64,000 bases of DNA from assembly GCA_004519485.1 (NCBI GenBank), contig CP038129.1, forward strand, positions 62,001-126,000. The letters run 5' to 3'. This document shows positions 15,701 to 34,475 of the stretch, piece by piece. The position numbers and the translations under genes were made by a program. The number at the start of each line of letters is the position of its first letter. The stretch's first letter is position 1. The notes under the pieces were generated by a model that saw only the letters and a list, made by a program, of their open reading frames with translations, was not told the DNA's origin and did not search any database. This DNA comes from Nannochloropsis oceanica. Lineage: Eukaryota; Sar; Eustigmatophyceae; Eustigmatales; Monodopsidaceae.

Positions 15701-15784
15701 TGGGAGGAGGTGGCGGAGGCTTGGAGGAGGGTGAATGAGGGCAGGTATGAAGGGAAGCAGGAGTTGTATGAATTTGGGTTTTAA
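9712..15784 (+). CDS. PP2C phosphatase - cyclic-nucleotide-binding - degenerate AGC kinase fusion (plant PKG-like)
   Basis: Exons: 9712-9874, 10025-10235, 10486-11114, 11430-11564, 11709-14213, 14370-14954, 15122-15784. It begins MGCIHS, a likely N-myristoylation and palmitoylation site. The PP2C domain (exons 2-5) has KANQD, VFDGHG, SGTTA, NVGDSRA, FTRSLGD, VASDGVFEF and TDDIT, so the metal-binding set looks complete. Exon 5 then has CNB-like pieces (FYVVEKGAVEVR, GECFGEMALI, SLFALDSTAFRAL, FLMVRQGVVEVR). The C-terminal kinase domain reads LLFRGLQPELLYVD, then TDFRHAK, TYTLCGHAAYAAPEM and DYWQLGILLFELL. HRD is FRG and DFG is DFR, so the catalytic Asp is missing; from memory the Arabidopsis homologue (At2g20050) shares FRG and DFR here. 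A reading-frame change occurs inside exon 5, near a 12-G run at 13395-13406. Long Gly-, Ala- and Ser-rich inserts split the CNB domains. Domain order and kinase motifs make orthology to plant PKG-type proteins likely. Confidence 0.85.
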
Positions 15785-16884
15785 GAACGGAAAAATGGAA
15801 AGGGGGAAGGGGGAAGGGGGTGTGCAGGGTGCGCTTGGCGGCGTGTGCGGAAAGATTGAATGGGGCCGAGAGAAATAGGAAACAGCAATGACTGAATTAA
15901 ATGATGAGGAGAAAAGCCATAGAGAATAATAGAGGGAGAGTGGGAAAGAAAGGCAAGGGAAACGCATCCTTCGAGTGGTACCTGTTGCCAGTTTCCCTCG
16001 TGAACAAAGACAGATGAGTAATCGAGAAAATTGTTTCTACCTTTCAAAAAGCAGCCTTTGTATGTGTGCAATAGCAAAGCCTGGTAAAGCCTCGCGCAAT
16101 TAAATGGGTCGTTTTACATTGTTCATGTTTGTCTGCGTGTGTGGCTGAGCGCATGTGTTCGCGTGTGTGTGTGATTGAATTGTCCTTCAGCAGGAGGGCT
16201 ACATGAGCGGGAAGGAATAATGAGAAGCAAAAACGGTAATGAGTGGATTAATCATTCAAAACAATAGATAGAAAGAAAGAAAGAAAAAGAAATGGCACCA
16301 TAACAAAATGGGGGCACGGGCGAAAGAGTAAGGGAGAATGTGATGTCCACAGTCAAATGAATAATCTCTCCCTCCAAAAGATTCAATCATTTACGTGCAA
16401 GCAGGCGTTTTACCACTGGACAAGGGTGCATACACCCATACACTCACTTCCGAGCAACTGGATAAGAGAATCACGGGGAGGTTGCTATGGGGCGAATCAG
16501 GCCTCTCTCTCCGCCTTTTTGCGCCCATCGACATGGTTAGGAGGTCCCCAAAAAAAGCCCCCTTTACACATCGATCTGGTTCAGCCTTCTATCGCGTGCT
16601 GTCTGGTCATCACGAGCAAATTACGGGGTAAAAAAAGGAGCCTTGAAGACATGGGCCAGAATGAGGTGGAATACTATGTGCAGTGATCCGTGCGGGCAAG
16701 TTGTGAAACATAAAACGAAAGATCGCAATCAGTTCCTGGAACCCGCTGAAAGGAAGTAATATGCATGCATCAAGAAATCATACGAGAGACTGCGAGCAAA
16801 TGATTTTTACCAAAGGGGGGGAACAAAAAAGTTCCCGAGCCATACAGGGGTTAGGTCAGAATGGTGGCAGGAAACAGAGTTCCT

Positions 16885-16968
16885 ACCAGGCTTTCTTCGA
16901 ACCTGTGATCTTTCGGTTCGAAGCCGAACGCCTTATCCGCAGATTGAACCTGTAAACTAGGCCAATGG
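16885..16968 (-). tRNA. tRNA-Arg(TCG)-like sequence, probable relic
   Basis: On the minus strand, GGATAAGGCG is followed by a perfect 5-bp anticodon arm (TTCGG / CCGAA) enclosing CTTCGAA, so the anticodon would be TCG (Arg). Next come AAAGATCAC and GGTTCGAA, a B-box. This order matches eukaryotic tRNA-Arg. However, the D-arm carries an insertion of about 19 nt between TGGCCTA and GGATAAGG. The T-arm is disturbed (AAGAAAGCC instead of a clean stem), and I find no acceptor stem. A relic or tRNA-derived SINE head is more likely than a working gene. Confidence 0.4.
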
Positions 16969-19094
16969 CCCTGGGAGAGCGCCACAAGGGGGTTCCTATA
17001 TGTATATATACTGGATAGCTGAATTCTGTAGGCATACCAAAACCAAGCACTTTAATTCATGCCAATTCTTTTTATTTCATTCTGTAACTCGCCTCATTTT
17101 GTGCTCGATTTACTTTCGTAAGTATTCGAAATGCCTACGGATGTCCTTCATGAGCCCATGGGGTCTCATCAAATGAGAAACTTGACTTCATGCTGCATTG
17201 CGTGGTAAGGCCTTTAGGGGGTTAGGTGTCAGCTCTTTTGTTCAAATATCTCGATGCCAACCAAAAATTGCCACTGATACTCGTGTCACCATCTATTTAT
17301 ACATAGTGGATCTTAATTGTGCCCTGGCACCATCCCACCATGGCGTCTTCATGGTCAAAATCACCACCCCTCCAACAGACCCCCCCAACCCCCAACCACC
17401 AGCGAGGAAAAAGGACCAAATGGCGCTGATATGGGCTACAGCTACGCGCATTATGAATTCACAGTGGACAAGTGACCTCATCTGCAAGACATGCAAACCT
17501 GAATCTCGTGTGTTGTGGCAGCAGATATAGATCCATCGCCGGAGATGCAGCAGCAATTGGACAAGGGCAACCTCGGAGCACGCATCAATGACAACTACAT
17601 TCATGGACTCTTTGTAAGGGCTGCCCAAATTAGGAGAAAAGGGGGCTTACATCATTACCTGAAGCCGGTGAAAAAGTCAGACCACCACCGACAGCAGCAG
17701 CAGCTGCTGCAACAGCAGCGTGGCGGTGGAGGGGGCGATGATGGTGAGAGGGAGGAGGAGGAGAAGGAAGAGGAGCAACAACAACAGCAGCAGCAGCCAT
17801 CACCTGCAGCAACTATGCAGAGGCATTTGGCGAAGCTACCCCTTGCATAGGGTATAGACCCCGACAGCTTGGGGGCTCCAAAACCTATCTCCTAGACGTT
17901 CCACTCTCTTATTTCTACCCCAAAACCTCCAAAATTGTTCAAAATGGAGGTATTAGGATATAAATAACTGAGAGGAAAGTCTAGAAAAAAGGTTTGAGAT
18001 CTCCGCGCACGGAGTTTCCGCCCAAAAAGGCATGGATCTTCGAAAGGTTGACATGCGGTAGTGGGCAGAAAGGAGAAGACCAGCGAGGTTTCCTTGGCTT
18101 AGAAGGATGATCAGCAATTTGGATTGCTGACCCGAATGGCAGCAATTCCAACAAAGGCGACGACCGAGATCTTCCTTTCACCCATCTCAAGGCGAAGAAG
18201 GCCATCAGAAGAAGCATGCCGGTCTTGCCAACCTGGTGGTCCTCAATGCTGAGAGGAAGGTCGGTTCCTTGGTGCGGACAGTGGGGTTGCATGAGCGTTT
18301 GCGGGTGTAGCTGACGCAGCAGAGTTGGCCGGGGATGCAGGCTGCTTTTGTGCGGGCAAGCAAGCGAAATGTTGGTGCTGAGTAGATGTTGCGGATGATT
18401 GCGGGCTGCGTTAATCGCACCTACAAGCCTAAGGAGCAGAGAGGAAATGGATATGGCCACTCTGCTCTTTCGCATTACGGGACCCAATGGGCTTTATGCT
18501 CTCATGCAAATGCTTTATTTACCCCGCGAAAGCTACCTTTACGAGCGGTCAGTCATTGCCGCCTTCGACCCCGTGATTCTCAAGCCTTTGTGGAGCTACG
18601 TGCAAGGTTTGGTTAATGCTTCCATAGTCAACTTCCTTGCTTTTTTTTTTGAGCCTGTCTTGAGGGGGGAGATGACGTAGGTGGAGGCCTACGAGAGGGG
18701 TTAGATGCTGATGATGGATGAGGTGGCTGATATTTATATATTGTGAGAGGTTGCGCTACTTTCCCAATGCAGACTGTATTTTAAGTACCTTCGCTTTTCA
18801 TCGTCCGCTGCCTCTTGGCAGTCCTCAGCAGCATGACGAAGACAGGGCAGTCGTTCAATATACACGGAATGAAGAGGTGGGGAGCAGGATAATTGCAGTT
18901 AAAGGCGACAAGCCTGTCGAGATCAAGCTATCGGCTTCCCTGTAGCAAATATCCCTGTGGTGTGCCCGATGGACGGCCGCTCGAACGTGGTGTAGAGAGA
19001 CGAAGTGGTGCCTCACATCTTACCACATCTCTGTTGATGGGCGAAGGAATCAACAGTGGCGTCGGCGTGGGTTGCATTGGTGGTGAAGGTTTCT

Positions 19095-19265
19095 GATCAT
19101 ATTTCTGGGAGGAAGGACGAGACAGAGTACACGATGAAAGCAGACTAAAGCCAGCGTGAGAGAGAGACAGGATCAGATCCGTTCAGCTCTGTTCCGTCTC
19201 TCACGCGGGCTTCTGCTCTGATTTCGTCTTATCTGTCTCATCTCCTTCGCGTCAGAAATAACACC
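19095..19265. repeat. Imperfect foldback (inverted repeat) of about 170 bp
   Basis: Left arm 19095-19172 and right arm 19190-19265 are reverse complements at roughly three bases in four. GAGACAG...GCGTGAGAGA on the left faces TCTCTCACGC...CTGTCTC on the right, and ATTTCTG faces CAGAAAT further out. The loop is about 17 nt around GATCAGATCC. No target-site duplication or terminal transposon motif was recognised. It could be a MITE-like element or a hairpin RNA source. Confidence 0.5.
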
Positions 19266-20685
19266 ATTCTCTTTGGGGAGATGCAGCAGCTGGTGCCAGG
19301 ATAGCTGGGCATGACCTTTTCATTATCCCTGGAAGAAATAGCGAGAGAGAGTAGCAGTGTCCTTAAAAAGTATAAGACCGCTCTTGGCCCTTCGAAAGGG
19401 AGAAAATACAAAGGAGAAGTAGAAGCGGACGGTGGAAGGAAGGGCGAATGGAGTGGAGGAGGAAGAAGGAGAGGGGAAAGAACCAGAGGATGTTGATGAG
19501 GATGATGAGGGGGAGAGTTGCAAAGGGGACAAGACCAAAGGAAAGGTGATGATAAAAGGATGGATATTTGTGACAGTGACAGCAGTGATGAAGAGGGAAA
19601 TTTCAAGGGACAAGGGGGGGCGGGGGGAAGGAAACAGGTTATAGCAGCAGCAGCAGTGATTCCAACGACAGTGGGGACGATGCACGTCGAAGGAAGTGAG
19701 GAAGAAAGAAAAGGCGAAGGTGACAGATGGGGTAGAAAAAAGAGAGAAAGGCAGAAAATCAGAAAATATTGTTTATGTGTAGACATATATTTCTTCTATA
19801 TCGCTCATAAAGAAGTAGTATGTGAGTGTTGATGGTAATGGTCCCTATTTTGATATGGCCCACCCACAACCCACACCAACTCACCCTCCTAGGGCTGCTT
19901 TTTGGTGTCTCCTTTTTTGCCAAAAAGGGCTTTTTGGCTTCCTCTCACTATTCTGATTGCAACCATTTCAGGCACATGTCTCACATCCTCTCACTTCTTA
20001 CAAAAACACAAAAAATGTAAAATCCTGGGTTTTGCGTTCCTCATTTTCGACGGAGAACTGCGACCCCACCACATTTTCTCGCGCGGCGTGTGCATTGAGC
20101 TCCAAGCATGAACAGAACACTTGCAGCCTAAACTTTGAGCTCAACCTTGGCAGCCATACCTCTTGGCAGGGTCAGGATTGCATTTACATACGTCTTCCTT
20201 GTCCCTGCGGGCGGCATTTAAAACTACCCCCCTCCGTAGGTCATCCTTGACCCTAATCCCTCCTAAATCTCACTCCTGCCTGATCATCATCCATAGCAAG
20301 CCCTACAAAGATAATTTTGAAAGCATTATTGGTCGCTGCTCGTCCTCATACCATGGCTCCACGTGCCACGCAGCTGCGCTTTTTCATTCTCTTTTTGCGT
20401 GGGGGCATGTAAGCTGCCAAATTAATCGGCCAGGAAGAGAGCGAAACTTAGCTCGTCTTGCTTTTATGCGACGTTCAAGCTCGCATTTAAAGCGCATAAT
20501 CGTCGACTTACTTATCTTACGACTATTTCGCCCTGTATTTCATCCTCTCGTCCCCCTTTTCCCTTTCCTCCCCTCCTTCCTCACACACCGCCTAAAAGCA
20601 ATACTACGCGTTAAAATAGACCACCTCGTCCGCGCTTGGATAGATACACGCCCAGTCCAAAACACCTACGACCAGAACAAGCAAG

Positions 20686-21613
20686 ATGAGCGACATCCCA
20701 TACGAAGACCAGTTTAAGCATATCGAGGGCGGGGAATACGAATTCCGTAGGTCTTGTTATTGGCTTCACTTGTTCGCTACTCATACACTCACCCGCTTCC
20801 TGTCCCTTCGTCCCTGGTTTTCTCTCAATGATGTTGGAGAACGTAAATTTTCTGTGTCTGCCATGGGTTTATCAGGCACCCAAGCTTACTCTACTCCTCT
20901 GCTGATGTGTGCTTCTCTCCCTCCCTAACTCTCCCCTTCACTCACTCCTTCTTTTCAGTACCGCAGGATATGGGCCCTGGTAGTGTAGAGCGAGCAGGGA
21001 GCTTCGAAGCTCATACAGGTAGGTGGAGGAGGTAAGGATTGGAGATAGAGACGAGAAAGGGGAGAGAATTGGGAAGACATCGCAAAATGAGAGACAGGCA
21101 TGTAGCCTTTGATATCTCGCATCGGGTCCATGCGTACACCACCCTCCATACTTTGAGCTCTTCTTCTTTTTCATTTTTCTCCACCTCCTCCTCCTTTTTC
21201 TGTCCCTCTCTATTTATGACTCCATGGACATGCACCTGCCGCATCATCCATCAGCACAGCAAGCCCGCGGTGGCAAAGGACAAGGAGGAGAAGGAGAAGG
21301 AGAAGGAGAGGAAGGGTTGGAGGAAGGCGACGAGGAAGAGCCTCCGAAAATGCTTGCATGTGATGAGAAGGGAGAGGTTAAAGCACCTCAGGTCTATCGT
21401 TCAACCAGTGGTGCCAAAGGAAGCTCCATCCTGCCAGGGAAGGAGGGAGGGAGGGAGGGAGGGAAGGAGGGAGCGACGCGACAGGGATTTGCGCGAGGAG
21501 CTGTGGCGGGGGTGTCGACGGTGATGGAGGAAAAAGGAGGAGAAGAGAGGGGAGAAGGGGGGATAAGGATACAGGGGACTTCGTCGGGGGTCGGAGAGCT
21601 CGAGAGGGGTTGA
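20686..21613 (+). CDS. Small acidic protein of unknown function
   Basis: Not recognised. Three exons with good splice sites and closing phases: 20686-20746, 20959-21018, 21255-21613 (159 residues). The start reads MSDIPYEDQFKHIEGGEYEF, continuing LPQDMGPGSVERAGSFEAHTG and then a Gly/Glu-rich stretch (GKGQGGEGEGEGEEG). After that comes EEPPKMLACDEKGEVKAPQ, then a tail that becomes GGGAGG-repeat coding. The true 3' end may lie earlier, with a donor after CCTCAG or near 21430, or splicing may continue to a possible exon around 22165-22211. Donors GTAGGT and acceptors TTTTCAG and CATCAG are strong, so a real gene is likely even though its end is uncertain. Confidence 0.5.
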
Positions 21614-23604
21614 GGGAGGAAGGGAGTAAGGAAGGAGGGGAGGAAGGGAGGGAGGGTGAGAGGAAAGAGGAAAGAGGAAAGAAGGGAGAATACAAAAGAT
21701 TTTTGGGGTATTAGAGAGAGAAAAGAGGTGAAAAAGGAGGGGACGAAAGAATATTTATATATGTACCAAAAACTAGTAAAAGCGAGAAAGAGAGACCGGG
21801 AGGGAGGGAGAAAACGAGATGTGGTGACATGGAGAGAGAGAGACTGGAGACATCCACACACAGAGAGAGACAGAGACAGACAGAGACAGAGACAGAAGGG
21901 GGGAGAGAGAGGGAGAGGGAAAGAGCAAAGAAAGAATTAGAGCAGCCCCATTAACATAAGAAGAAAAGGTACTGATTGAAAAGAGATAGGCAGGAAAGGG
22001 AGCATGAGGAGAAGAAGGGAAGGAGATCGGACAATGGGAGACGACATCAATGCCAGGGTACATTGCCATGGGACATGGGCGTACGTGCAAGTATTGTTAC
22101 TCGTCTTCCCTCTCCTCCCTCCCTCCCTCCCTTCCTTCCTTCCTTCCCCTCTTTGCACCTCCAGGCATGCGGCGAAGAAGAATTCACATCAGACATGTCA
22201 ACAGGTTAAAGCTTAAACAGAAAGAAGCGAAAAAAACAAGTACACTCAGGCTTGCCTGAGTCTATGATCTTTTCCAATGTTATTTATTTATATGATTAAC
22301 TTCCATCCGTTACACATTCCCCGATTCTATGTTCCTCTTGCTCGCGCCAAGTTGCTGCCCCTGCTGACCGTCGATATCCGCCGAGTCAACAACCACTCGT
22401 ACCACCTTCTGGGCTTTCCTCGTTATCTTTCCGCCGGGCATCTTCTCCTAGGCTACGTAGGAGAGGGAGAAAGGGGCAGGAGGGATGGAAGGAGGGAAGG
22501 TGAGAGGGAGGAAGAGAGGATTAGATGCAGATGCAGACCTCGCTCTTGCACTGTACCCGTACGTATGGCTTTTCGCGTACCCTCTTGCCAATCTTCCATT
22601 AGACATTATTTTTTTGCTCGATTGACAGATAAAAGGATGGGCCATGAGGGAGATGGGGCGGGAGGAAGTAAGCGGAGAGGGGGGAAGGGATTCGGAGGAG
22701 GAGATCAGACTCTTCTTGTTTCGATCCTTTGCCCTGATCCTCGAGAGGATGAGGCTCTGGTTATAGTAAAGAATAGACTGTTGGAAATCACTTCTCCTCT
22801 AAATGTCATGTCTCTCTTTGATTCACTGAAACGGGAGAAATTCATACCTGACTTGTGTGGCGAGATGCCGGAGGGATAGGTGGATGATATTCAGCAGCAA
22901 CTGCTCCAGCAGCAGCACTGAGGAACTATCAGGCAGTAGCAGGAGCAGCAGCAGCCCACACAAGGGCGGTGGCACTCGGAGTTGCAACCTTATAGTAGCA
23001 GGAGGGAAGGTTGGAGGCCACCACATTCCTTGGCCATTCCCACCAAGCTCAGGCACCACCAGCGTCACCAGCCCAGCTCGCATCATGAAGGTGAACATGT
23101 AGAGGACCGGCTTCCTACGGCGGAGTGCTGCGTTCTTGGGAAAGCACGGAGGGAGGGTACGGAGGACCAAGATACTCGCTTGTGAACGATGCAGGCCAGG
23201 AAACATATGCGCAGCCGCCGCACCCGTAAACCAATCGCATGTCCTGTATACATGTGTACATATTGTGTTGTTCTTGTGCTTTGAGAATCCGGGCATGACT
23301 GTGCAATGCAAGAAGCACGAAGGGGGTGAATGGAGAGAGAAAGAGAGGAGGAAGTAGGAAGTCGTTGCTGTTGCCCGGCCCATCCGACAGAAAGCGGGCG
23401 TGGTAACATTGCCACCACTACGACACTCTGAGGACTTTTGTAAAACGAAAATTGGACCACCTTTGATCCTGGATGTACAAAATTCGGCGTGCATCCTGAG
23501 TAGAGAAGAATGCGAAAAATGTCGTTTTTTTGGGGGGTAGATAGATCTATACATATTCAATAAAAACATTCAAGATTTTCTCCTTTTGGTCTCGGACGAC
23601 CTTG
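21614..23604. other. Intergenic interval, no supported gene
   Basis: Purine tracts to about 21930 include GAGAGACAGAGACAG repeats near 21865-21900. Mixed-composition sequence follows. A 248-codon minus-strand open frame at 22823-23569 has no recognisable domain and is Leu-rich where it crosses a CAG repeat. AATAAAA occurs at about 23560 on the plus strand. Confidence 0.4.
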
Positions 23605-26178
23605 TCATCGATTTTCCTTTCCATTCCGAGAAAGGAATCTTTTTTCAAGCAAGTATGCATGGTACGGGGCTGAGGTGAACTTTTGCGTCGAAATAGAGAA
23701 ATAGCCGTCCTCATGGTAGATTGGCTCATCACAACGAGTGTGAAGCAAGCTGTCCCGATTCTGAATGTCACTCTTGCCATTCCCCAAAATAAAGCCACCC
23801 ACCAGCTCGGGGCACTTGAAGTCAAGGGCTGGTCCTTGGGGAAGCAGCATGGCGTCGAAACTTTGCTGATGAGAATCAATTTGAAAGCTCGCTAATTCCC
23901 TTGGTATCGCCCCGTCTGCAATGTCGTGTAGTTCTGCGGGTATTTTTTCGTCCACGACCATCCCATGCATGCTGACTGGATACCAACTGAAATACATTTT
24001 CTGATCTCCGGGATAGTTTACAAAATCCCCAAAGGGACCGTTGACAATCGTCATGCTTGGCATTGTGGCCAACGGCTCCATATATTCTGTCTTGATACCA
24101 AATTTCAAGCGAACATTGTTGCCGCTCCAAGCAGGAATACCCATTTGCTGGTCGATTTCGCGGCGTCCCTCCCAAAGACAATTGACAACCTTGTCAAATC
24201 CTCCGTGAACCCCAAGATTTGTGACGATTTGGAACGTCGTATTCCGGTCAAGGGCAGAAAAGTTTCCAACCTCCCTACGTGTTTCAAGGACAATCGTATT
24301 CAAAAGTGTGTGTATTGTGTGCTTCGATCTCAATGCCCGCTTGATGGCAAGCTTTAACTCGGAGTGTGAAATGGCGTATTCCTCTGACTCGAAGGCTGCT
24401 TCGAAGAAGGACTCGTTCACCAAGGTTTTATTTAACGGGATTGGACGGTATAGTCGCTGAGGGCGTTCGCCCAGGTAAGAGAGGGTCGGGTCACCCTTGA
24501 GCATTTCGTAGTAGATGGCTTGCAAGTTGTTGAAGTACAACTCCAACTCCGTTGGGGAAAGAATTGAGTCATAGGGTACCATATAATGAAACTTGGATGA
24601 CTTCCACTTGGCCCAGTCAATAGTTTCTCCTACAAGGTACTCCAAGTAGCCGGAAAACCGTAGAGCGCTCTCCAACATTCGTGCCCCAGTTTTCAGGGTC
24701 TGGTCACCACTGTAAACCAAGCCCAGATGGATCTTCCCTTCTTGGTTGCTACTTGCACGATTCAGTATATCTGTGCTCTTGTCAAAGATTGTCACATCGT
24801 ATCCGTGTTTTTCAAACAAAAGTGCCATTGTGCAGCCTTGAATCCCTCCTCCCAATACGGCGACACGCTTCTTGTTGCTCTTTGCCTCGCTTATTTTGTG
24901 TCGAAAGATGGCCAGAATTTTTTCGGGCTCAGGAGTTGCAGAAATGCCAGCAACCCTTGGTAAAGTTGTCAGTAGATTGTCTGTACATGCTTGATAGAAG
25001 TTTTGGCTGGACGACGTATATAAGTGGGCTACATTGTAGATATTCGCAAAATGGTCGACCCACGCCTGCATCTTATCCTCAGCGGACATGCTATTTATTT
25101 GGAAGCGATGAATCTGGTTGGGTTGAAACAATTTGAAATAGGGGACATCAACGGCAATTAAGTCCCCTGCAACTGCGTGCTGCATAATTTGTGTTATATC
25201 TGCGACGTAGTAGTCGTTATGGGTCGGCTGAAGCAAGAAGTCGCGCATATTGTTGCCGATTGACAGCCCATCTGCCGTCCACCCCGGTAGCTGTTGGTGT
25301 TGGCCGTTTCTCACTAGGCCGCGGAAACTCACTCCTTTATGATGTTTCACGGCTGCATATATGCGGTCTTCCCTTGAACCGCGGATGCTTTTTTGATGTA
25401 TTTCTTGGCAAGAAACCTGATAGGCGGAAGTCGAAGCTGCAGAGGTGGAAGGAAGTTTCGCCCTTCTCTTCTCCTCCTGGCGATCAGAGACACCTTTGCA
25501 CACAACGTAGGGGAAACAGTTGATGGCGGCAGGATTGGCCGTCAAACAGGCCGCCAACTCTTCGTAGTAGTTCGATGGAATAGTATCGTCGTCGGGCAAA
25601 ATGCTCACAAAAGCACCTTGTGCCTGAAGCAGCAAAAAGTTCACGTTTGATATCCACCCCAAATGCGCTTCGTGACTGAACGTCGTGATGTGAATATTTT
25701 GCTGGCCGGTCTCTCGAAGATGTTTCTCCAGTTTTGCGACAAAATCCTTGCATAAGTCCGTGTCAGCACACGGGTCAAAAGATATGAGCAACTCAATATT
25801 GCTGTATGTCTGGTTGGACACGCTTCGCACGGTCTCTTCTAACGTGAGTGATCCCTCAAACACTGGAATGCATACAGTAACTAAAGGAGGCGTCCCGCTC
25901 ACATCTTCTGGCGTCGATATCAAGCCCTGGTTCCGGTTACACCCTTCCTTCACCACGTTGGCCTTGTTGTCATCTGTATCCGAAACCCCGTCGGTGAGAG
26001 GAGCGAGTGTAGAATGGTAGTCCTTGTCCATATGAATACCCCGATCGTCACTTGATGATGTATATGCTCTGCTGCTTCTCAAGCCACCTAGGTGCAACAT
26101 TTGATCATGGGCGATGAACGTAAGTATGACCCAGACAGCTGCTGCCAAGTAGCACAGATACGTCTTGCTGATCCACAT
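23605..26178 (-). CDS. Membrane-anchored GT2 glycosyltransferase fused to an FAD-dependent oxidoreductase
   Basis: Single exon, 857 residues. The ATG at 26178 is preferred over an upstream in-frame TTG. Residues about 6-24 (TYLCYLAAAVWVILTFIA) form one N-terminal membrane segment, so a type II, Golgi-like topology is likely. Residues about 100-330 are a GT-A family 2 domain: VTVCIPVFEGSLTLEETVRS, SNQTYSNIELLISFD and the nucleotide-sugar/metal motif SILPDDDTIPSNYYEEL. From about residue 425 there is a Rossmann FAD-binding start, RVAVLGGGIQGCTMALLFEK, then EGKIHLGLVYSGD, typical of DAO-type oxidoreductases. The second half runs to the end without an obvious partner subunit. Substrates are unknown. 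The pairing suggests making and oxidising (or checking) a sugar in a surface glycan (inference). Lack of introns, lower GC and absence of GGGAGG tracts set it apart from neighbours and fit acquisition by transfer. A sulfotransferase gene lies divergently about 1 kb away. Confidence 0.85.
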   Translation of the reverse strand: MWISKTYLCYLAAAVWVILTFIAHDQMLHLGGLRSSRAYTSSSDDRGIHMDKDYHSTLAPLTDGVSDTDDNKANVVKEGCNRNQGLISTPEDVSGTPPLVTVCIPVFEGSLTLEETVRSVSNQTYSNIELLISFDPCADTDLCKDFVAKLEKHLRETGQQNIHITTFSHEAHLGWISNVNFLLLQAQGAFVSILPDDDTIPSNYYEELAACLTANPAAINCFPYVVCKGVSDRQEEKRRAKLPSTSAASTSAYQVSCQEIHQKSIRGSREDRIYAAVKHHKGVSFRGLVRNGQHQQLPGWTADGLSIGNNMRDFLLQPTHNDYYVADITQIMQHAVAGDLIAVDVPYFKLFQPNQIHRFQINSMSAEDKMQAWVDHFANIYNVAHLYTSSSQNFYQACTDNLLTTLPRVAGISATPEPEKILAIFRHKISEAKSNKKRVAVLGGGIQGCTMALLFEKHGYDVTIFDKSTDILNRASSNQEGKIHLGLVYSGDQTLKTGARMLESALRFSGYLEYLVGETIDWAKWKSSKFHYMVPYDSILSPTELELYFNNLQAIYYEMLKGDPTLSYLGERPQRLYRPIPLNKTLVNESFFEAAFESEEYAISHSELKLAIKRALRSKHTIHTLLNTIVLETRREVGNFSALDRNTTFQIVTNLGVHGGFDKVVNCLWEGRREIDQQMGIPAWSGNNVRLKFGIKTEYMEPLATMPSMTIVNGPFGDFVNYPGDQKMYFSWYPVSMHGMVVDEKIPAELHDIADGAIPRELASFQIDSHQQSFDAMLLPQGPALDFKCPELVGGFILGNGKSDIQNRDSLLHTRCDEPIYHEDGYFSISTQKFTSAPYHAYLLEKRFLSRNGKENR

Positions 26179-27191
26179 GGTCTGGCCTAGGTCCAAGGGG
26201 CAAATAGCTAATTATCCCTGTAGACGTGTATGCGTATATTAGCGGGTCGTCGTGAAGGTAACGATCAAGGTTTCTTTGTAGACACAGTCTAATCTGAATG
26301 AATATAAATGGTCGACGTCTTGTGCGGACGAGATACTCGTAGAAGGGCACACAAGCTTTGGGCTTGGTGTTGTTCACAAGATGAACGACTACCGATATCT
26401 AGTCAATCGTTGATCATCCTGTCCTTCGATCTGGCACGATTTGCCAATTCGTACATATCGAAGTGCTGATGACTGGGTGAGAGAAACGGCAAACTGAAAC
26501 GGCCTTCAACGGCGTTGACGAACAGCAACAAGATGTGAAACAAAGTATTGGAAATTCATGCCAAGGTGCTCACACAGTCCTTACAAAACGCTACCATGTC
26601 ATCAAAACCGGTCGAAGACTTAAGTTTGCATCTTTGCCAGAAGTATTGCAAGGGAAGAGGGCTATCTTGCCAAGAAAAGCCCAAATGCACAACGAAACCG
26701 TTTCACCAATTCTTCTTCTACGTGCTCTACGTCTTTTTCACCAAGCCCATGATGTAGCTTTTGCAGTCACCTACCCACAATTACCTACCTATATAGCGTC
26801 AAGTGCCTGGTCTGATGCGAGCTTTACTCTCTAGTCGTGGAAATCAAATCATGGCTCTCTCTCTGAATTCAAAGACCTTAAATTCCAACACCCTCTCACA
26901 TCAACTCCCCTCTGGATATGAACTTTCCTCACAGACTCACAAACTTGTATCGCTCATATCTCCAACACCGCTGCCTTTGACAAACAAGTAAGCTTTTCTT
27001 TTCGTACATTTGCTGATGAGCAAATTTCCCACCATGAATATTTTTATGCATTACCTCTCTCTCCCCCTCCCCCCCGAAAAGGATGGCACGGAGGATTTGA
27101 TTACATTCCCTCACCTTTCACATATATGAGCCACAACCGACGGTTGGCATATTCTGGGATTAACATCTAGTTCGTAATTCATCGTATTTGA
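26179..27191. promoter_or_regulatory. Divergent region between GT2-FAD and sulfotransferase genes
   Basis: About 1 kb of lower-GC sequence between two divergent starts, so both promoters should lie here and co-regulation is possible. Short open frames within it match nothing known. No defined element was recognised. Confidence 0.4.
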
Positions 27192-28688
27192 ATGATGTTG
27201 CAGATGCCAAACCCTCGCTTGAACCATGGCTTGCAAAGCCACAGGCGTTCCTTCAAAGTTGTCTTCACTGCAGCGGCTTTTGGATTTCTCTTTAGTATTT
27301 GCCCATTAAGCATCTATAGTCTTTTGGAAATCATACCAGCTTCCATTGAAATGGGTGTCCGACGCCTTGGCAACCCATCAGTACCATCACGAGCAAACAG
27401 CATCAAGCCTAAAGCCCGTTGTATCCTCCATATTGGTCCGCACAAGACGTCGACCACTTACATTCAGACTAAATTATGTCAAGAGCGCGACACACTGAAA
27501 GAGATGGGCTACATTGTGCCATTGGGCAAAGCATGCGAAGGAAAATGTAGCCCTACTCGTTTTGCGGGAATGGCAGGCCAATTGCGAGGGAATATGGAAA
27601 TAGCTCGGCGATTTGGATGCTCTCTCGATCCAATCAACGACTTTAAGGAAGCATTGCAATCTTCCGGGGACGCAAATATTATCCTGTCAAGCGAGGGATT
27701 CGATATGCTAAGTGACGATCATGTCCATGAATTAGCAAATCTCTTGGTAAATTACCAGACCACTGTGGTAATCTACTTTCGCCGCAAGCTGGGGCACCTT
27801 GTTAGCTACTACACTCAGGTGAACAAACATTATGGCGCGATTTTCCCTCCTTTGTCATTCAAGGAATTCATATGGAGGTTCCTCAACGACGTAGACCCGG
27901 CAGCAGATCTATTCGATAACCCCATACCGCAACTAAACGGCCTGTGCTACACCAGGATGTTTGAAACTTATGGCCGATATTTTGGAAAGGACAACCTTGC
28001 AGTCATTGACTACAACGAGATGGTCGACGCCGGGAAAGATCCATGGGAAATCATAGTAAGAGATGTGATGGGGTTCGAATCCTACGCTGACAAAACGAAG
28101 ACTACTCATACTGAAGGTGATCATCACCAAGATAAGAGCAAAAAGATAAACGTCTCTCCAGATGCGTTTTCTCTTTCAGTTGCGGGTTCTTTTTACCAAT
28201 GGCGATGGACAAATCTTGGCCTTTCCGCACCAACAGGACCAAATGCTGAAGAAATGACGGATATCAGTAAGCAGTCAGACGTCGTCCACAATCACACATT
28301 GCTTCCTCGCTTGGAATGCATTTTGCCGTTACTAGACCCTCTCAAAGATATGCTACCAAAAACATGCAGCACCCTCGAGAGCGTGTGCAGCTTGTGGGAG
28401 CTACATGAAAAGGAAGCTCTGAGTCGTCTGGCAAAAGAGGGATCACGCCTCCTATACTTTAAGAGGGACGATGACAACTCCAGCGATGGTAAAGGTAAAG
28501 GAAGCATTACCTTAGGAAAAAGGAACGAGACTGTATGCGAGGTGGATACTGTAGCACTGACATTGCATGACGGAAAGCGACATTTGGATGAGGTTTTCCG
28601 ACAAATTTCTACCAAGGTAGAACAAACATGCAGTGGTGATATGATCACTCCTGGAGGAAGAATATCCCCATTTTACATGCAAAAATGA
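27192..28688 (+). CDS. Membrane-anchored carbohydrate sulfotransferase-like protein
   Basis: Single exon, 498 residues. Sulfotransferases move sulfate from PAPS to sugar or protein hydroxyls, in eukaryotes usually in the Golgi. After a short basic N-terminus there is one hydrophobic segment (FTAAAFGFLFSICPLSIYSL, about residues 20-40), a probable signal anchor. Residues ~77-90 read CILHIGPHKTSTTYIQTKL, the 5'-phosphosulfate loop in the form common in bacterial-type sulfotransferases (HIGxHKTGTTxIQ). VVIYFRRKLGHLVSYYTQ at about residue 193 fits the 3'-phosphate region with its conserved Arg. The C-terminal ~150 residues are less conserved and contain NHT and NET sequons. It has no introns or GGGAGG tracts and, with the divergent GT2-FAD gene, looks like a two-gene module for a sulfated glycan (inference). 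Confidence 0.8.
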   Translation: MMLQMPNPRLNHGLQSHRRSFKVVFTAAAFGFLFSICPLSIYSLLEIIPASIEMGVRRLGNPSVPSRANSIKPKARCILHIGPHKTSTTYIQTKLCQERDTLKEMGYIVPLGKACEGKCSPTRFAGMAGQLRGNMEIARRFGCSLDPINDFKEALQSSGDANIILSSEGFDMLSDDHVHELANLLVNYQTTVVIYFRRKLGHLVSYYTQVNKHYGAIFPPLSFKEFIWRFLNDVDPAADLFDNPIPQLNGLCYTRMFETYGRYFGKDNLAVIDYNEMVDAGKDPWEIIVRDVMGFESYADKTKTTHTEGDHHQDKSKKINVSPDAFSLSVAGSFYQWRWTNLGLSAPTGPNAEEMTDISKQSDVVHNHTLLPRLECILPLLDPLKDMLPKTCSTLESVCSLWELHEKEALSRLAKEGSRLLYFKRDDDNSSDGKGKGSITLGKRNETVCEVDTVALTLHDGKRHLDEVFRQISTKVEQTCSGDMITPGGRISPFYMQK

Positions 28689-28777
28689 TACAATGATATT
28701 AAAAAAACCTTAGAGCTCGGATCAATGTTGATGAATAGCAAAAGAGTTTCTCAGGTTATGCATGAAATGATATATTC

Positions 28778-28783
28778 AATAAA
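28778..28783 (+). promoter_or_regulatory. Probable poly(A) signal of the sulfotransferase gene
   Basis: AATAAA lies 90 bp after the stop codon, preceded by an AT-rich stretch. The position fits a polyadenylation signal. Confidence 0.45.
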
Positions 28784-29177
28784 AGACCACAACCCTGTAT
28801 GTTGAATACATCTCTGCCACGGTGGATAGCAGCCAGACATGACTCCCCCTCAGTAAAAAGGCACAAACGAAGACGGCATAAGTAGGGGGAAAAGTAAGAG
28901 GAAGAAAAACATACACAATGGCTGTTCAAGAGTGTTTGTTGCTCGCTGACATGCACACCTGTTGTGATGAAGAACACGGAGTTAATTCTTGAAAAGGTAA
29001 ACGCTGCCGTTGATTCGCTTCCCAACGTCCGTCATTCTTCGCGATGCATTGCTGCTTGCCTTCTAACACACACATGTCCTTCTTTTTCGCACACGCCCCA
29101 AACAAACATACGTAAATTACCAAAAAGCTAACCCTGTCATCAGAGCTCACTGCCATCCATCTATCAGCCTTACAACA

Positions 29178-32100
29178 ATGGCTGCCCGAATGCTGGCCAA
29201 GTGGTCCTCCAAAGCCGAAGGGCAGGCGACAACAGCGAGTCCGACCCCTAAGCAGGAAGTATCCTCACCGGTCCTAAGTAATTTGGAGGGACAAAGCAAT
29301 GCTCTCAGCCCTGGCATCACGAACGCTACTGCCAGCAAAGGGGCAGGGAAGCTGACGATGACGGCCTCTGTATCAGCATACAAAGCACCCGTCCCCTTTC
29401 TCATTGAGAGCTTAGCTTGGCAAGACTTGTCGTACTACTACCGCACCCAAGACGGAGGAAAGGACATAGAGAAGGCTGCGGTCAAGAATGCGACGGGCCT
29501 GGTGAGACGTGGGGATATGGTGGCCGTCATGGGTACGTAGGGAGGGCAAGGAAGGGTAAGAAAATAAAGGAAGGACTACAGATTGGCGTCAAGATTCCTC
29601 TCTCTTTCATCTAAGAATGCTCTCTCTCTACGTATATCTATTTTCTCTTTAGGCCCGAGTGGTGCAGGGAAATCGTCTCTCTTTGACGTGTTGGCTCGAC
29701 GAATTGGGAGCTCAGGACGGTTGGAAGGGCAGGTGAGAAATTAAAGGAGGAAGGCTTAATTAACCATGGGCCGCATTGATCCCACGGTAAATCAACTCAA
29801 CTGAATAGGAAAAGGAAGTGAAGAGGAATAGAGAGGGAAGGAAAGAAGAGCAGATGATGTTCTCGATTAATACGCGACCATATATATTACATCTACCCAC
29901 TCATAACTCCCACGTGTCTCAGATGTACGTAAATGGCTCAGCCCTGGACGACGACACGTTTCAACGTATCTCCGAATACGTGCAGCATGAAGATGTCTTT
30001 GTTCCCACCCAGACACTGGAGAATGCCCTTTTATACCATTGCAACCTCCGCCTGGGTCCCACCGTCCCTCTTGGAGAGAAACGGGCCAAGGTCGAGGGCC
30101 TGGCCCACGAGGCGGGCTTGAGCGACAAAATGCACACTAGGTAATAAGCTTCCAATTTCTCTCGTCGCTCTTTCTTTTCTTTCACTACCGTCGAACACTG
30201 CGATTCGCCCCCTCTCGCTCTCGCTCTCTCTTGTTCTTCCTACTTCCCTCTCTCCTCTTCTTCCTCCTTCCCATACCATCTCGTCCATCCATCCCCGTCT
30301 TTCGACCTCTTTTCCGTCGTGGCTCATGTGACAACCTTGCTGAGCCCGTCTGCAGGACATCCACGCGTCACAGCTTCATCAAAGTTTAATGCTTCCTCCA
30401 TTTAGATTGACCTCCCTCCCTCCCTCTTTGCCCTAAGAATCGGTGGCCTTCTAGCTGGTGGCTTGACGGTCAAGGGACTCAGCAATGGAGAGAAGCGAAG
30501 GGCATCTGTAGTGTGTGCCGCCCTTGCCTCTCCTTCAATCTTGTTTCTAGACGAACCAACCAGGCAAGCTCTCCCATGGTTCCTTCTTCCTTTCTTTCCT
30601 CCTTTCCTTTTTTTGTGCCCCTCACCTCCCTCCCTCCCTCCCTCTTCTCAGTGCGCTTATTTCCTCACTTATCACGCTCCCTTTCTCTACATCATCCTCT
30701 TTCTTGTCCCCCTGCCTTTTTGTCAGCGGTCTGGACTCTTATGCAGCTTTGAAGGTGGGTAAAGAGGAAGTACAAGGGAGGGGAAGAGGGAGGGAAGGAA
30801 GAGGGCCTTTGAAAATGCACATATTTATTTCTGAATGCCCCTCCTTCCCTTCCCCCACCCTTTCTCCCCTCCTTCCCTCACTCCCTCTGCCCGTCAATCC
30901 TTCCTTCCAGGTCATGGAGATGATGTCCAAATTCTGTGCGGAAGGCCGTCTGATAGTCTGCACCATTCACCAAGTACGGCGGAAGGGAGAAAGGGAGGAA
31001 GGGGGGGAGGGAGGAAGAAAATCGAGGAAGGGAAAGCTCAACTTGGTCTGATTGTACTGTCAAGCCTCTTTAAAAATCTCGTTTCACAATCCATTCCTCT
31101 TTCCCTCCCTCCTTCAAAAAGCCGCGCTCGCAAGTGTACGATCTCTTCAACAAGGTTTTAGTCTTGTCTCAAGGGAACACTATTTATTTCGGCGACAGCT
31201 CTACTGCGGGTGTGCTACGCTGGTTTGAGGGTACACTCCAGCGGTCCCTCCCCCTTGGCACCTCCATCCCTGACTTCGTCTTAGACTTGGTCAACATCTC
31301 CTTCCTGGAGGACGAGGACGGGAAAGAGGGAGGGATGGAGCGAGGGGAGGAGGAAGGGAAGAAGCCTAAAAATGGGTTGGCATCGACGGGGGAACAGCAC
31401 GGATTATCGTCTTCGGGTACGTCTGCCTCCTCCGCTTCGAATTCTCTCCCCCCCCCCTCCTCGTCTTCCTTCTCATCCTTCTCCTGTTCCCCCTCTCGGA
31501 TTGAAGAGAAGAGCATCAAAAGAAAGGAAAACAAAAAAGAAAAGAAACAGGAAGGGATGACGCAACACAAGCAGCACAAGCAACAGCAGCAGCAGGGGCC
31601 GTTGCAAATTATAAAGGCTGCAGCGCTCTTTCGTCATTCTCCTTCCTCCATGGCATTGCGCGAGGAGATAAATGAAATCCATGCTCGGGCTTTGTCAATA
31701 GAGAAAGATCATCGTCACAAGCACCATGGAGAAGATGAACGCACTGATAGGCATGTTTTGACGACGAAGGAAAAAATTATAGCAGCTACGCACAGGGGGG
31801 AGAGTAGTTGGGCGTATCGGTTTCAGGTAGGTAGGTTGAGAGTGAGGGAAGGAAGGAGGGAGGGAGGGAGGGAGAGTAGGACGGTGGAAGGGGCCAAGAG
31901 CTTTTTCAAATCCTTCATTTGAGGACTTTGCCTCACTCAAGTCTCTATGCCAACGTCCCACTGTTACTCAGGTGGTGTTCAAGAGGAATCTCCAATTTTA
32001 TCTCGCTAACCCCGGGAACGTCCTCGTCCGTTTGTTCATCTCTTTTACCGTGGGCATCTTCCAAGGCATCGTGTTCTTTAATTCGCCGTCCAAGACCCCC

Positions 32101-33227
32101 GCACTCGTGCAAGCAGTCGCATTACTTATCTGTCTCTTTGTCACGCAGCTACAAGCGCTACTGCTACCATTTGTAAGCATGACTTTGTTCATCGAAGACC
32201 GCAAATTTTTCGTCCGCGAGGCTGCCTCTCGTCTATATTCGACTAGGTGTGTAACTTTATGTATTTTATCTTATATCGCTCCCCTTCCAGGACAATCCTG
32301 CGTGTTTGGATAGATTCTCAGGATCTGTTTATATCTTCTTGACTTGGCAGTGAAGTCTCTTCGCATTCTTCGCTAATCACCATCGTGAGGTTTGTGTCTT
32401 TCTCTGTCTATCGCAGCTCACCTGAGCAACCTCCCCGTGTTCTCCATCTCGTCCTTTATCACGTAATATTACTTTCGACAGCATTTACTTTCTCGCCAAC
32501 GCCTTACTAGAGCTGATCCTCACCACTGCCTGTGCGCTAATCTATGGACTTCTAACCTACTTCTTGTGCTTTTATGCAACAAGTGGAGATTTCGCGTTTA
32601 GTTGGGGTACGTACCGTTTTCCTGCGTGATTAGGGAGAAGTCGAAGGGGAAGACTAAAGGGGGGCTTCATACAAGATAAATACTGACTTATTTACTGACT
32701 TTCAATTGCTTTGTTATTATGACAACACAGCCAGATTATCCGTCTACCTCCTTTTCGTTGTCGCGGGCGCTCACACCGGTTCCATGCAAGCTATTATGTG
32801 CGCCATCCTTTCTCCTTCTCTAGAGCTTGCCTGCACGCTCAATGTCGGTATCACTTGCGTGTTTTGTTTTGGTGGCATCCCCCCTCGACTGCTCTTTCCT
32901 CCTGCCAGGATTATTCAGGTACGTATTTATGCATGTTCGTGATTCTCCCTCATTCCCTCTCTCCTCCCTTCCCCTCACAGATACACAAAATTTACTTATC
33001 TGCTCCTTAAATCCCTGCAATAGTGGATCTCCCCCTTGAAATATAGCTACACTGCCATGGTCGAATCCTATTTCCGCGGCACCTCCGCCAACTTCTACGT
33101 GGAGATGATGGACGTCACACGACCAAGCGGTGTGTGGGTCAACTTTGGTTGCCTCCTTGTCTTCTTTATAGTCTACAATGTAATTTCTTTCTGGGGACTG
33201 CATAATTTGTATCGTACGAAACGCTAG
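29178..33227 (+). CDS. ABCG-subfamily half-transporter
   Basis: ATP-driven exporter with the NBD-TMD order typical of ABCG/White. Eleven exons: 29178-29532, 29653-29732, 29923-30140, 30438-30563, 30727-30754, 30911-30973, 31122-31826, 31972-32246, 32482-32606, 32731-32918, 33024-33227 (788 residues, all phases close). Walker A is GPSGAGKSS across exons 1/2, the signature GLSNGEKRR, Walker B ILFLDEPTS with D-loop GLDS, and the H-loop CTIHQ. The membrane half has FKRNLQFYLANPGNV, REAASRLYSTS, IYFLANALLELIL and ISPLKYSYTAMVESYF. A ~150-residue linker rich in Ser, Lys and Gln joins the halves. The intron after DEPT uses a GC donor (CAG|GCAAGC at 30564), and exon 5, which encodes the D-loop, is only 28 nt. 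It must dimerise to work; the substrate (lipid, sterol, wax precursor) cannot be told from sequence. Confidence 0.92.
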
Positions 33228-34475
33228 ACTGCTTTTGGTATGCGTCATCTGCATAAAACGCACGTGTGACACACAGTGCGCAGAGCAAAGTTAAACAAAA
33301 AAATGTCGGCAGTGATACACGTGGGTAAAAGAAAGCATAATTATGCACACCGAAAAAGCACTTTAGGGGAAAAAAAGGATGGATGAGACTTTTAAGCAAT
33401 AGATATTGTCGTGAAAAGAGTAAAATTTCCGTTCATTGCGTTTTACATCTCTCCTTTTCGCTAATTTGCCTTTCACAGGAGCAGAGAGCTCTGCTCATCT
33501 TATTCTAATAAGACAATCTTTATCCGTCTGGACAAAACGGATTTATGAGAGCCAGCAGCAAAAAAAATATTGTACCAGAGAGCTGTAGGCAGAGAAGAAT
33601 TAGGAAAAGGAGAAGGTGCCACGCACGAGGGGAGGGTACTGGCAGCAAGAGCCAGCAACGCTTGAGCAATGCTCGATAAGATCCAAACGCGTCTATTCAG
33701 CATCGAAGTCGAGTCCCTCACGGCGACTGAGCCGCTGCCGTCTCAGGTTACATTAATCGTCAGCTCCATCAAGGCAATCGATGTAGACCCTGTCCACGTC
33801 GCAGGGCGAACAAGGATAAGTGGAGTGTCAAGGGCTACCTCAACGACCCTAATTGGTGGCCTTATGACTCTTTTGTGGTCCCGTTTTTGCAGTCAATCCA
33901 GACTGCGAAATCTTACTTCGATCGATGGTAACATGTTTTCCACACCGACACTGGATGTTGAGCAGAAATGTTTTGATATCGGTGGGCTTCTTGGAAGAGG
34001 CAACGAAACATTTGCCCCCTTTATGGAGATAAGAAAAAATTATGCCGGCTGCTGCTGGCCACGCGAACACTGTCAATATGCCCATAATAAGCTTACTGGT
34101 CACACAGAAAACGAAGTCATCACGTGAATCCAGCAAAGGACAAGAGAGCAAGAGCATGAGGTTAAAAAGAAGTGCTGAGAAGTGGGGAGACGTCGAGGGA
34201 GACGTTGCCTGCGTTCGCCTGCGTTCGATGCTCTTCGCCCTTTTCTTACACCAAGATGCACGTAGTTATTTACTCACTTTATCTTCGTCCCTCCAACGCC
34301 AACACAGCAACAAGAGAAGTCACAACAATAGGAGCGGCAAGCGGTTAGAAAAGTGAGTGGCGGCTCGACAGAGGTATAACCAAAGCTTGCATGAAAGGTC
34401 GACCGGACCGACACAAGAACACGCACACACACACGCAACAGAGCAGCAAAGCAGCAAAGTAGTCACACACACCAG
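33228..34475. other. Intergenic interval, no supported gene
   Basis: Moderate-GC sequence between the tandem ABCG and kinase genes. A 152-codon plus-strand open frame (33669-34127) has an ATG but no recognisable family and no splice context. From about 34370 the sequence becomes CACACA/AGCAGC-rich just before the kinase ATG. Confidence 0.4.

What the first reader, a model, noticed from the sequence alone, without database searches (positions are those of the whole stretch)
23605..28688. Intronless, divergent pair: GT2 glycosyltransferase-FAD oxidoreductase fusion plus sulfotransferase
Two adjacent genes both lack introns and GGGAGG tracts, are lower in GC than flanking genes, and start divergently about 1 kb apart. 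Both have a single N-terminal membrane anchor. One joins a GT2 domain (PDDD motif) to a DAO-type FAD oxidoreductase (GGGIQG) in one chain; the other has a bacterial-type PAPS loop (HIGPHKTSTT). Together they look like an acquired Golgi module that adds, oxidises and sulfates a glycan. I know of no described GT2-FAD fusion in algae.
Basis: partly seen in the sequence, partly recalled or inferred. Interest (0 to 1): 0.82.

Follow-up and report, generated by a model that had tools for sequence, protein, structure and literature searches.

The report
Algal glycosyltransferase–flavoenzyme fusion beside sulfotransferase
A microalga carries, as one membrane-anchored protein, two sugar-handling enzymes that in bacteria are usually separate neighbouring genes, next to a sulfotransferase; it probably came from bacteria and may make a modified, sulfated surface sugar.

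Summary
The window is from the nuclear genome of Nannochloropsis oceanica. Two open single frames, start codons 1,013 bp apart, point away from each other: a GT2–FAD oxidoreductase fusion (23605–26178, −, 857 aa) and a sulfotransferase-like protein (27192–28688, +, 498 aa), each with one N-terminal hydrophobic segment. The FAD half is a full-length member of an uncharacterised bacterial family. Of 80 bacterial loci found with FAD-only patterns, 74 have a GT2 domain within 1.6 kb and 54 an FdtA-type cupin just upstream. The algal FAD domain nests among FdtA-less bacteria; its GT2 domain groups with the partner GT2s, not with the alga's own. So the fusion joins a bacterial gene pair. Oceanicola granulosus has a reversed fusion with a related sulfotransferase right behind. 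Sulfotransferase-like genes were seen at 7 of 25 FdtA-less and 0 of 55 other loci, with biased seeds. Bacterial origin is likely for GT2–FAD, less sure for the sulfotransferase. No other eukaryote could be searched; enzyme activities are inferred.

The parts
23605..26178 (-). GT2-FAD oxidoreductase fusion gene, 857 aa from the first ATG (open frame runs to a TTG at 26196)
26107..26163 (-). N-terminal hydrophobic segment, putative signal anchor (residues 12-30 of the 863-aa reading)
   Evidence: hydropathy
25087..25887 (-). GT2 (GT-A) domain, about residues 104-370 (outer bound estimated from the partner alignment); Pfam core 107-248
   Evidence: Pfam PF00535 4.9e-15; groups with bacterial partner GT2s
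25585..25596 (-). PDDD motif of the GT2 domain (residues 201-204)
   Evidence: D203 and D204 identical in 67 of 67 partner GT2s aligned
23632..24870 (-). FAD oxidoreductase domain of glycine-oxidase fold (about residues 443-855)
24835..24852 (-). GGGIQG dinucleotide-binding motif (G449, G451, G454)
26179..27191 (.). 1,013-bp interval between the two divergent start codons
27192..28688 (+). Sulfotransferase-like gene, 498 aa
27252..27341 (+). N-terminal hydrophobic segment of the sulfotransferase (residues 21-50)
   Evidence: hydropathy
27429..27458 (+). PAPS 5'-phosphosulfate loop HIGPHKTSTT (residues 80-89)
   Evidence: H80 and G82 conserved in 28 of 28, K85 and T86 in 96% of the bacterial relatives aligned
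27780..27806 (+). 3'-phosphate-binding stretch, R197...S205
   Evidence: R197 and S205 conserved in 28 of 28 bacterial relatives; role of the residues recalled

Best explanation
The locus encodes two single-pass membrane enzymes for making a minor modified glycan. Shown: the long protein fuses a GT2 glycosyltransferase with a glycine-oxidase-fold flavoenzyme, and these two families are adjacent genes in most bacterial loci examined, so the fusion joins an existing pair. Shown: conserved motif residues of all three domains are largely kept. Inferred: the ancestor of the fusion came from bacteria whose loci lack FdtA, and gained an N-terminal anchor that places both domains in the ER/Golgi lumen. 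Inferred: the GT2 domain transfers a sugar from a nucleotide donor, and the flavoenzyme oxidises a hydroxyl (less likely an amine) on that sugar or on the acceptor end, passing the product between fused active sites. Inferred: the divergent sulfotransferase, probably co-expressed, adds sulfate from PAPS to the same glycan.
Against: No eukaryotic genome but its own was searchable, so transfer into this lineage versus an older eukaryotic family is untested. The algal branch is long in both trees (1.77 and 2.46). Within the partners, the algal GT2 does not sit with the GT2s of its nearest FAD relatives, so transfer of one exact pair is not shown. Five positions conserved in the FAD family are changed, two in the C-terminal DTGK motif (D836S, G838Q), so redox activity could be altered. 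The sulfotransferase matches bacteria weakly (best E 6.5e-10 among 292 genomes), no Pfam family, and its own model is poor. Sulfotransferase-like genes adjoining FAD or GT2 in L012, L047 and L054, and the one in L089, were not matched by the algal protein at 1e-4. Nine of the 13 seeds came from FdtA-less loci, so its 0 of 55 may miss other families. N. oceanica wall preparations are reported as about 90% glucose (PMC3499364 section 17), though that assay measured neutral sugars.
Confidence: 0.47

Rival explanations
1. The sulfotransferase is an unrelated neighbour. Only the GT2-FAD fusion is a functional unit, and the head-to-head arrangement is chance or reflects a shared promoter without a shared substrate.
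For: Sulfotransferase-like genes were seen at only 7 of 80 bacterial FAD loci, 3 of them 4-5 kb away or on the other strand (L033, L071, L089). Such genes also occur in polysaccharide clusters without this FAD gene (L008, L009). The alga has several other sulfotransferase matches. Its paralogue on C6 pairs with a gene without a GT2 match.
Against: All 7 are FdtA-less loci, like the alga's own FAD clade. In L012 and L081 the sulfotransferase frame overlaps the FAD or FAD-GT2 frame. The C6 paralogue also faces away from a frame with a hydrophobic stretch and an EDD motif, both by eye.
Confidence: 0.33
2. The FAD domain is not a sugar-alcohol oxidase. It either oxidises an amino sugar or amino-acid substituent, as most solved fold neighbours do, or uses flavin non-oxidatively to rearrange a sugar, as UDP-galactopyranose mutase does (recalled).
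For: The best solved fold matches are mostly amine and amino-acid oxidases. The bacterial partner cupin belongs to the FdtA family, whose known members are 3,4-ketoisomerases on the way to amino-deoxy sugars (recalled).
Against: The same fold lists hold alcohol oxidisers: glycerol-3-phosphate dehydrogenase/oxidase and L-2-hydroxyglutarate dehydrogenase. The five nearest bacterial FAD relatives lack FdtA.
Confidence: 0.35
3. The fusion is an old eukaryotic or stramenopile gene, not a transfer into the Nannochloropsis lineage, and its bacterial look reflects the absence of eukaryotic sequences from the collections used.
For: Only bacterial, archaeal, viral and plasmid collections and the alga's own genome were searched. 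The algal branches are long.
Against: The alga's own GT2 set is far from this domain. No other relative of the fusion was found in its genome at E 1e-3, although other DAO-family matches exist there. The linked pair is a bacterial gene-neighbour feature.
Confidence: 0.25
4. Assembly artefact or bacterial contaminant.
For: Both genes are single frames with bacterial relatives; the assembly was scaffolded with Hi-C (PMC6610115, passages).
Against: Both proteins carry N-terminal hydrophobic extensions absent from the bacterial relatives aligned; a diverged paralogue of the sulfotransferase lies on another contig; no N in the window; the right-hand neighbour has an intron-like gap.
Confidence: 0.03

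Closest known systems
Bacterial GT2 + FdtA cupin + DAO-type FAD oxidoreductase gene set (FdtA upstream of FAD in 54 of 80 loci, e.g. Acidovorax, Haliea, Mesorhizobium)
   Same: Same FAD family over its full length; partner GT2s score highest with the algal GT2 domain.
   Different: Separate genes, with a cupin; no N-terminal anchor in those aligned. The alga has one fused chain and no cupin noticed beside it.
Oceanicola granulosus FAD-GT2-FkbM protein and its adjacent sulfotransferase (L081)
   Same: Single-chain FAD plus GT2 next to a sulfotransferase similar to the algal one (phmmer E 1e-4).
   Different: Opposite domain order, extra FkbM methyltransferase, same-strand overlap of the genes, different FAD subclade.
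L012 (bacterium RI_153) sulfotransferase-sulfotransferase-FAD-GT2 gene run
   Same: Same six-row FAD set as the alga; all three functions contiguous.
   Different: Unfused; the sulfotransferases match PF00685 and PF13469, unlike the algal protein.
Glycine oxidase / glycerol-3-phosphate dehydrogenase fold (DAO superfamily)
   Different: 9-16% identity; own conserved stretches such as NEGKIHLG, SWY and DTGK.
Bacterial sulfotransferases of the order of Oceanicola (Rhodobacterales, order name recalled) and of Rhodobacterales plasmids
   Same: PAPS-loop and 3'-phosphate residues; 65 of 292 genomes have a relative at E 1e-3.
   Different: Listed matches lie within residues 34-331, mostly 60-230; the algal C-terminal part is unmatched; the two bacterial proteins aligned start at the PAPS loop, without an anchor.

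Membership tests
GT2 glycosyltransferase (PF00535) | Profile match above the curated cut-off | tested here: met
   56.3 bits against 23.3
GT2 glycosyltransferase (PF00535) | Acidic metal-site motif conserved | tested here: met
   D203, D204 identical in 67 of 67 partner GT2s; 19 of 26 positions conserved in at least 80% of them are kept
GT2 glycosyltransferase (PF00535) | Sugar transfer activity | not testable with these tools
   needs an enzyme assay
DAO-superfamily FAD oxidoreductase (PF01266) | Profile match above the curated cut-off | tested here: met
   34.7 bits against 27.9, over residues 444-529 only
DAO-superfamily FAD oxidoreductase (PF01266) | Glycine-oxidase-type fold | tested here: met
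DAO-superfamily FAD oxidoreductase (PF01266) | FAD binding and redox activity | not testable with these tools
   N-terminal GxGxxG kept; C-terminal D836S and G838Q depart from the bacterial family
Bacterial GT2-linked FAD family (defined here from 80 loci) | Full-length homology and family signature residues | tested here: met
   47 of 52 positions conserved in 76 bacterial rows are kept; tree
Bacterial GT2-linked FAD family (defined here from 80 loci) | Association with this GT2 subgroup | tested here: met
   Fused in the alga; GT2 groups with partners
Bacterial GT2-linked FAD family (defined here from 80 loci) | FdtA cupin nearby (majority subtype) | tested here: inconclusive
   55 of 80 bacterial loci have one, the five nearest FAD relatives do not; in the alga only the frames listed were looked at by eye, no profile search was made
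PAPS-dependent sulfotransferase | 5'-PSB loop and 3'-PB residues | tested here: met
   17 of 19 positions conserved in at least 75% of 28 bacterial relatives are kept, among them H80, G82, K85, T86, R197, S205; the 28 were chosen as matches of this protein
PAPS-dependent sulfotransferase | Match to a Pfam sulfotransferase family | tested here: not met
   no family at E up to 1; the bacterial relative P0004 also has none at 0.1
PAPS-dependent sulfotransferase | Sulfotransferase fold | tested here: inconclusive

The most novel reading that the evidence does not exclude
A bacterial surface-glycan cassette (GT2, flavoenzyme, sulfotransferase) was taken into the Nannochloropsis lineage, fused, given membrane anchors, and now makes an oxidised, sulfated glycan in the Golgi that neutral-sugar analyses of this alga would have missed. 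The same pair defines an undescribed and widespread bacterial glycan-tailoring system.
Probability: 0.33. Interest if true: 0.75.

Novelty: new variant of a known kind. Interest (0 to 1): 0.57.

Why it matters
A fused protein is good evidence that two enzymes work together. Here it ties an uncharacterised flavoenzyme family, seen in seven named bacterial phylum-level groups, to a glycosyltransferase subgroup, and gives a single testable protein for a function that in bacteria is spread over neighbouring genes. If active in the alga, it predicts a charged or oxidised glycan in an industrial species whose wall preparations are described as mostly glucose. It would also be an example of a eukaryote turning a bacterial gene pair into one membrane-anchored multi-enzyme.

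Tried and rejected
Giant-virus or phage origin: scans of viral contigs with each protein and with the FAD alignment found no confirmed relative (short peptide patterns, so distant relatives could be missed). Phages gave only short GT2-region hits for the fusion and none for the sulfotransferase.

Peptide-pattern search of bacterial genomes with the whole fusion gave 7 stretches, none confirmed; the FAD-domain alignment succeeded.

A fusion in the order of the Saprospiraceae relative: 298 genomes gave one match over most of the FAD domain (L015/L142), whose contig ends at the gene, so its downstream neighbour is unseen; the other listed hits were partial GT2 or short FAD-region matches.

The first GT2 tree used a wrong-frame algal row and some wrong-frame own-genome rows, because those loci were not turned to the match strand. 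It is discarded for the alga; one search repeats it with the algal protein itself. Left out: the cut partner frame of L070, L112 (fetched, not annotated), and four of the 11 other own-genome GT2 matches (one duplicate, three short pieces).

A mixed alignment of GT2 and FAD rows under the whole fusion put GT2 rows onto the FAD domain and was not used.

The sulfotransferase model is poor. Blastn between the C30 and C6 sulfotransferase loci aligned only coding stretches.

That low GC alone marks the genes as foreign was rejected: both flanks are near 50%.

Literature: searches returned no paper. Searches listed 15 of 20, 10 of 10, 12 of 2,466, 12 of 15, 2 of 2, 10 of 80 and 10 of 244 papers; no listed title or abstract start dealt with a GT2–FAD fusion, this bacterial gene set or these genes. 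I read passages of PMC8570151 and PMC6610115 (with its abstract), passages and section 17 of PMC3499364, and the whole of PMC6883114. The rest were seen as listings only.
Full report
What the window is. The genome holding the window has 32 contigs and 29,264,788 bases; its contig C1 is 1,670,642 bp. That equals the maximum pseudochromosome length given for the published Nannochloropsis oceanica assembly of 32 pseudochromosomes (29,303,273 bp in all; PMC6610115, abstract and passages); the totals differ slightly. PMC6883114, read whole, uses N. oceanica LAMB2011 as a 32-chromosome reference; that this is the same assembly is inference. The window is C30:62001–126000.

The observation. The − strand gene has its first ATG at 26178 (857 aa); the + strand gene starts at 27192 (498 aa); 1,013 bp separate the starts. 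Shuffled sequence of the region gave no stop-free run over 290 codons in 200 trials. Each protein has one N-terminal hydrophobic segment. GGGAGG is absent from both, though the reverse motif occurs 3 times in the first. GC is 48.1% and 46.0%, lower than the window (54.5%) but near the 50% of the flanks.

The neighbourhood in bacteria. The search patterns came from the FAD alignment alone. In 74 of 80 loci the nearest GT2 domain is within 1.6 kb of the FAD domain, in 64 on the same strand; one has it at 2.4 kb, five show none at the threshold used. Of those five, L014 and L015 have 0.25 kb or less of sequence after the FAD gene; L026, L064 and L073 have ample flanks. No background rate of GT2 near random genes was measured. 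In 54 of 80 loci an FdtA-type cupin lies within 1.2 kb upstream on the same strand, and 55 have one somewhere; 8 of 8 tested match PF05523. The 25 loci without FdtA include the five nearest relatives of the alga, L012–L016; they do not form one clade. Literature searches for the combination returned nothing.

The trees. FAD, 80 rows (77 of the 80 loci, two plasmid proteins, the alga; L070, L075, L080 left out as cut frames): the alga joins L015 (Saprospiraceae) at 99/95 within six rows at 100/99 with two Nitrospirota, an acidobacterium and L012. Its branch is long (1.77) and no eukaryotic rows were available. GT2, 102 rows (75 partners, 19 other bacterial or phage, 7 own-genome, alga): the alga lies in a 68-row set at 99/95 with 66 partners and one 'other' row, L070_7538, which directly follows the cut partner frame of L070; it is next to 23 partners at 93/84. 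Holding the alga with its own GT2s is rejected (AU p 0.0135). Profile scores agree: 129 bits for 75 partners, 95–117 for ten random subsets of 18 partners, 77 for 18 other bacterial GT2s, 23 for 7 own GT2s. Of those 18 controls, 9 had been fetched as database hits of the algal protein and the rest are neighbours in fetched loci. Against a simple co-transfer: the algal GT2 does not sit with the GT2s of its nearest FAD relatives (L012, L013, L016), and a five-sequence profile of those plus L048 and L068 scores only 70.

Fused precedent. In Oceanicola granulosus (L081) one 1,039-aa frame holds FAD, GT2 and FkbM methyltransferase domains. A sulfotransferase-like frame overlaps its end by 4 bp and is similar to the algal protein (phmmer 1e-4). 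It lies downstream of genes that look like dTDP-rhamnose synthesis (by eye).

The sulfotransferase. It has no Pfam, NCBIfam, PHROGs or PDB sequence match at E up to 1. tblastn finds relatives on plasmids, mainly of Rhodobacterales, two of which were seen among polysaccharide genes. In the order of O. granulosus, 65 of 292 genomes drawn from it have one at E 1e-3, best 6.5e-10. In an alignment with 28 fetched bacterial relatives, 17 of 19 positions conserved in at least 75% of them are identical in the alga, including H80, G82, K85, T86, R197 and S205; these relatives were chosen for their similarity. The structure model is too poor to settle the fold.

Sulfotransferases beside bacterial FAD genes. 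A profile of four sulfotransferases, none from the 80 loci, found three loci: L033, L071, L081. All three lack FdtA (3 of 25 against 0 of 55, Fisher p 0.028). L012, L047 and L054 were then noticed by eye among upstream frames, giving 6 of 25 and 0 of 55, p 6e-4. A wider search with 13 seeds and one profile added L089: 7 of 25 against 0 of 55, p 1.5e-4. The last two tests are biased, because 9 of the 13 seeds come from FdtA-less loci and match themselves; L047 and L054 are close relatives; and L033, L071 and L089 have the gene 4–5 kb away or on the other strand. By Pfam, both L012 genes pass a sulfotransferase cut-off, as does the downstream gene of L054; the L047 downstream gene falls below it, and the upstream genes of L047 and L054, and those of L033, L071 and L081, match none. 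The sulfotransferase-like genes that adjoin FAD or GT2 in L012, L047 and L054, and the one in L089, were not matched by the algal protein itself.

The paralogue. The alga has one other copy of this sulfotransferase type, on C6, split between two frames (40–53% identity), plus a remnant with stops about 7 kb away. Its divergent neighbour is a 512-aa frame with a hydrophobic stretch and an EDD motif (by eye), without Pfam match at E up to 1, related to frames on C17 and C18 (48%). A second head-to-head pair with a possibly glycosyltransferase-like gene is suggestive but is one case.

Mechanism. The most likely reading is a lumenal two-step enzyme: GT2 adds a sugar and the fused flavoenzyme oxidises it or its acceptor, with the divergent sulfotransferase acting on the same glycan. 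The pairing is shown by genomics; location, substrate, oxidation and order of steps are inferred. N. oceanica CCMP1779 wall preparations were reported as about 90% glucose with small amounts of other neutral sugars (PMC3499364 section 17); an assay of neutral sugars does not exclude a charged or oxidised product. The same section counts six GT2 proteins in that strain.

Verdict. The strongest new point is that the fusion captures a bacterial gene pair of unknown function. The weakest are the sulfotransferase's membership of the unit and the lack of any eukaryotic comparison. On rechecking, the bias in the sulfotransferase survey led me to lower the main explanation from 0.50 to 0.47, the novel case from 0.35 to 0.33 and the interest from 0.58 to 0.57, and to raise the first rival from 0.30 to 0.33.

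Noticed in passing
L012-L091: A widespread bacterial gene set (GT2, FdtA-type cupin, DAO-type FAD oxidoreductase) of unknown function; the cupin accompanies about two thirds of 80 FAD loci in several phyla.
   Followed up: partly
L010:8242-9668 and L010:1645-1824 (G000 contig C6): A frame-broken paralogue of the sulfotransferase and a remnant with stops, flanking a divergent 512-aa frame with a hydrophobic stretch and an EDD motif.
   Followed up: partly
G000:C4:837166-843582: Four neighbouring sulfotransferase (PF00685) matches about 1.9 kb apart on one strand, three with equal scores: probably a recent tandem array.
   Followed up: no
G000:C21:704191 and C21:719642: Two GT2-family matches 15 kb apart with identical translated stretches: probably a recent duplication.
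   Followed up: no
window 15000-34000: Stretch of about 50% GC poor in GGGAGG/CCTCCC compared with the rest of the window; 16-20 kb has only 3 such motifs and no frame of 200 aa or more.
   Followed up: no
L081:5962-9081: Three-enzyme single chain in Oceanicola granulosus: FAD oxidoreductase, GT2 and FkbM methyltransferase.
   Followed up: yes
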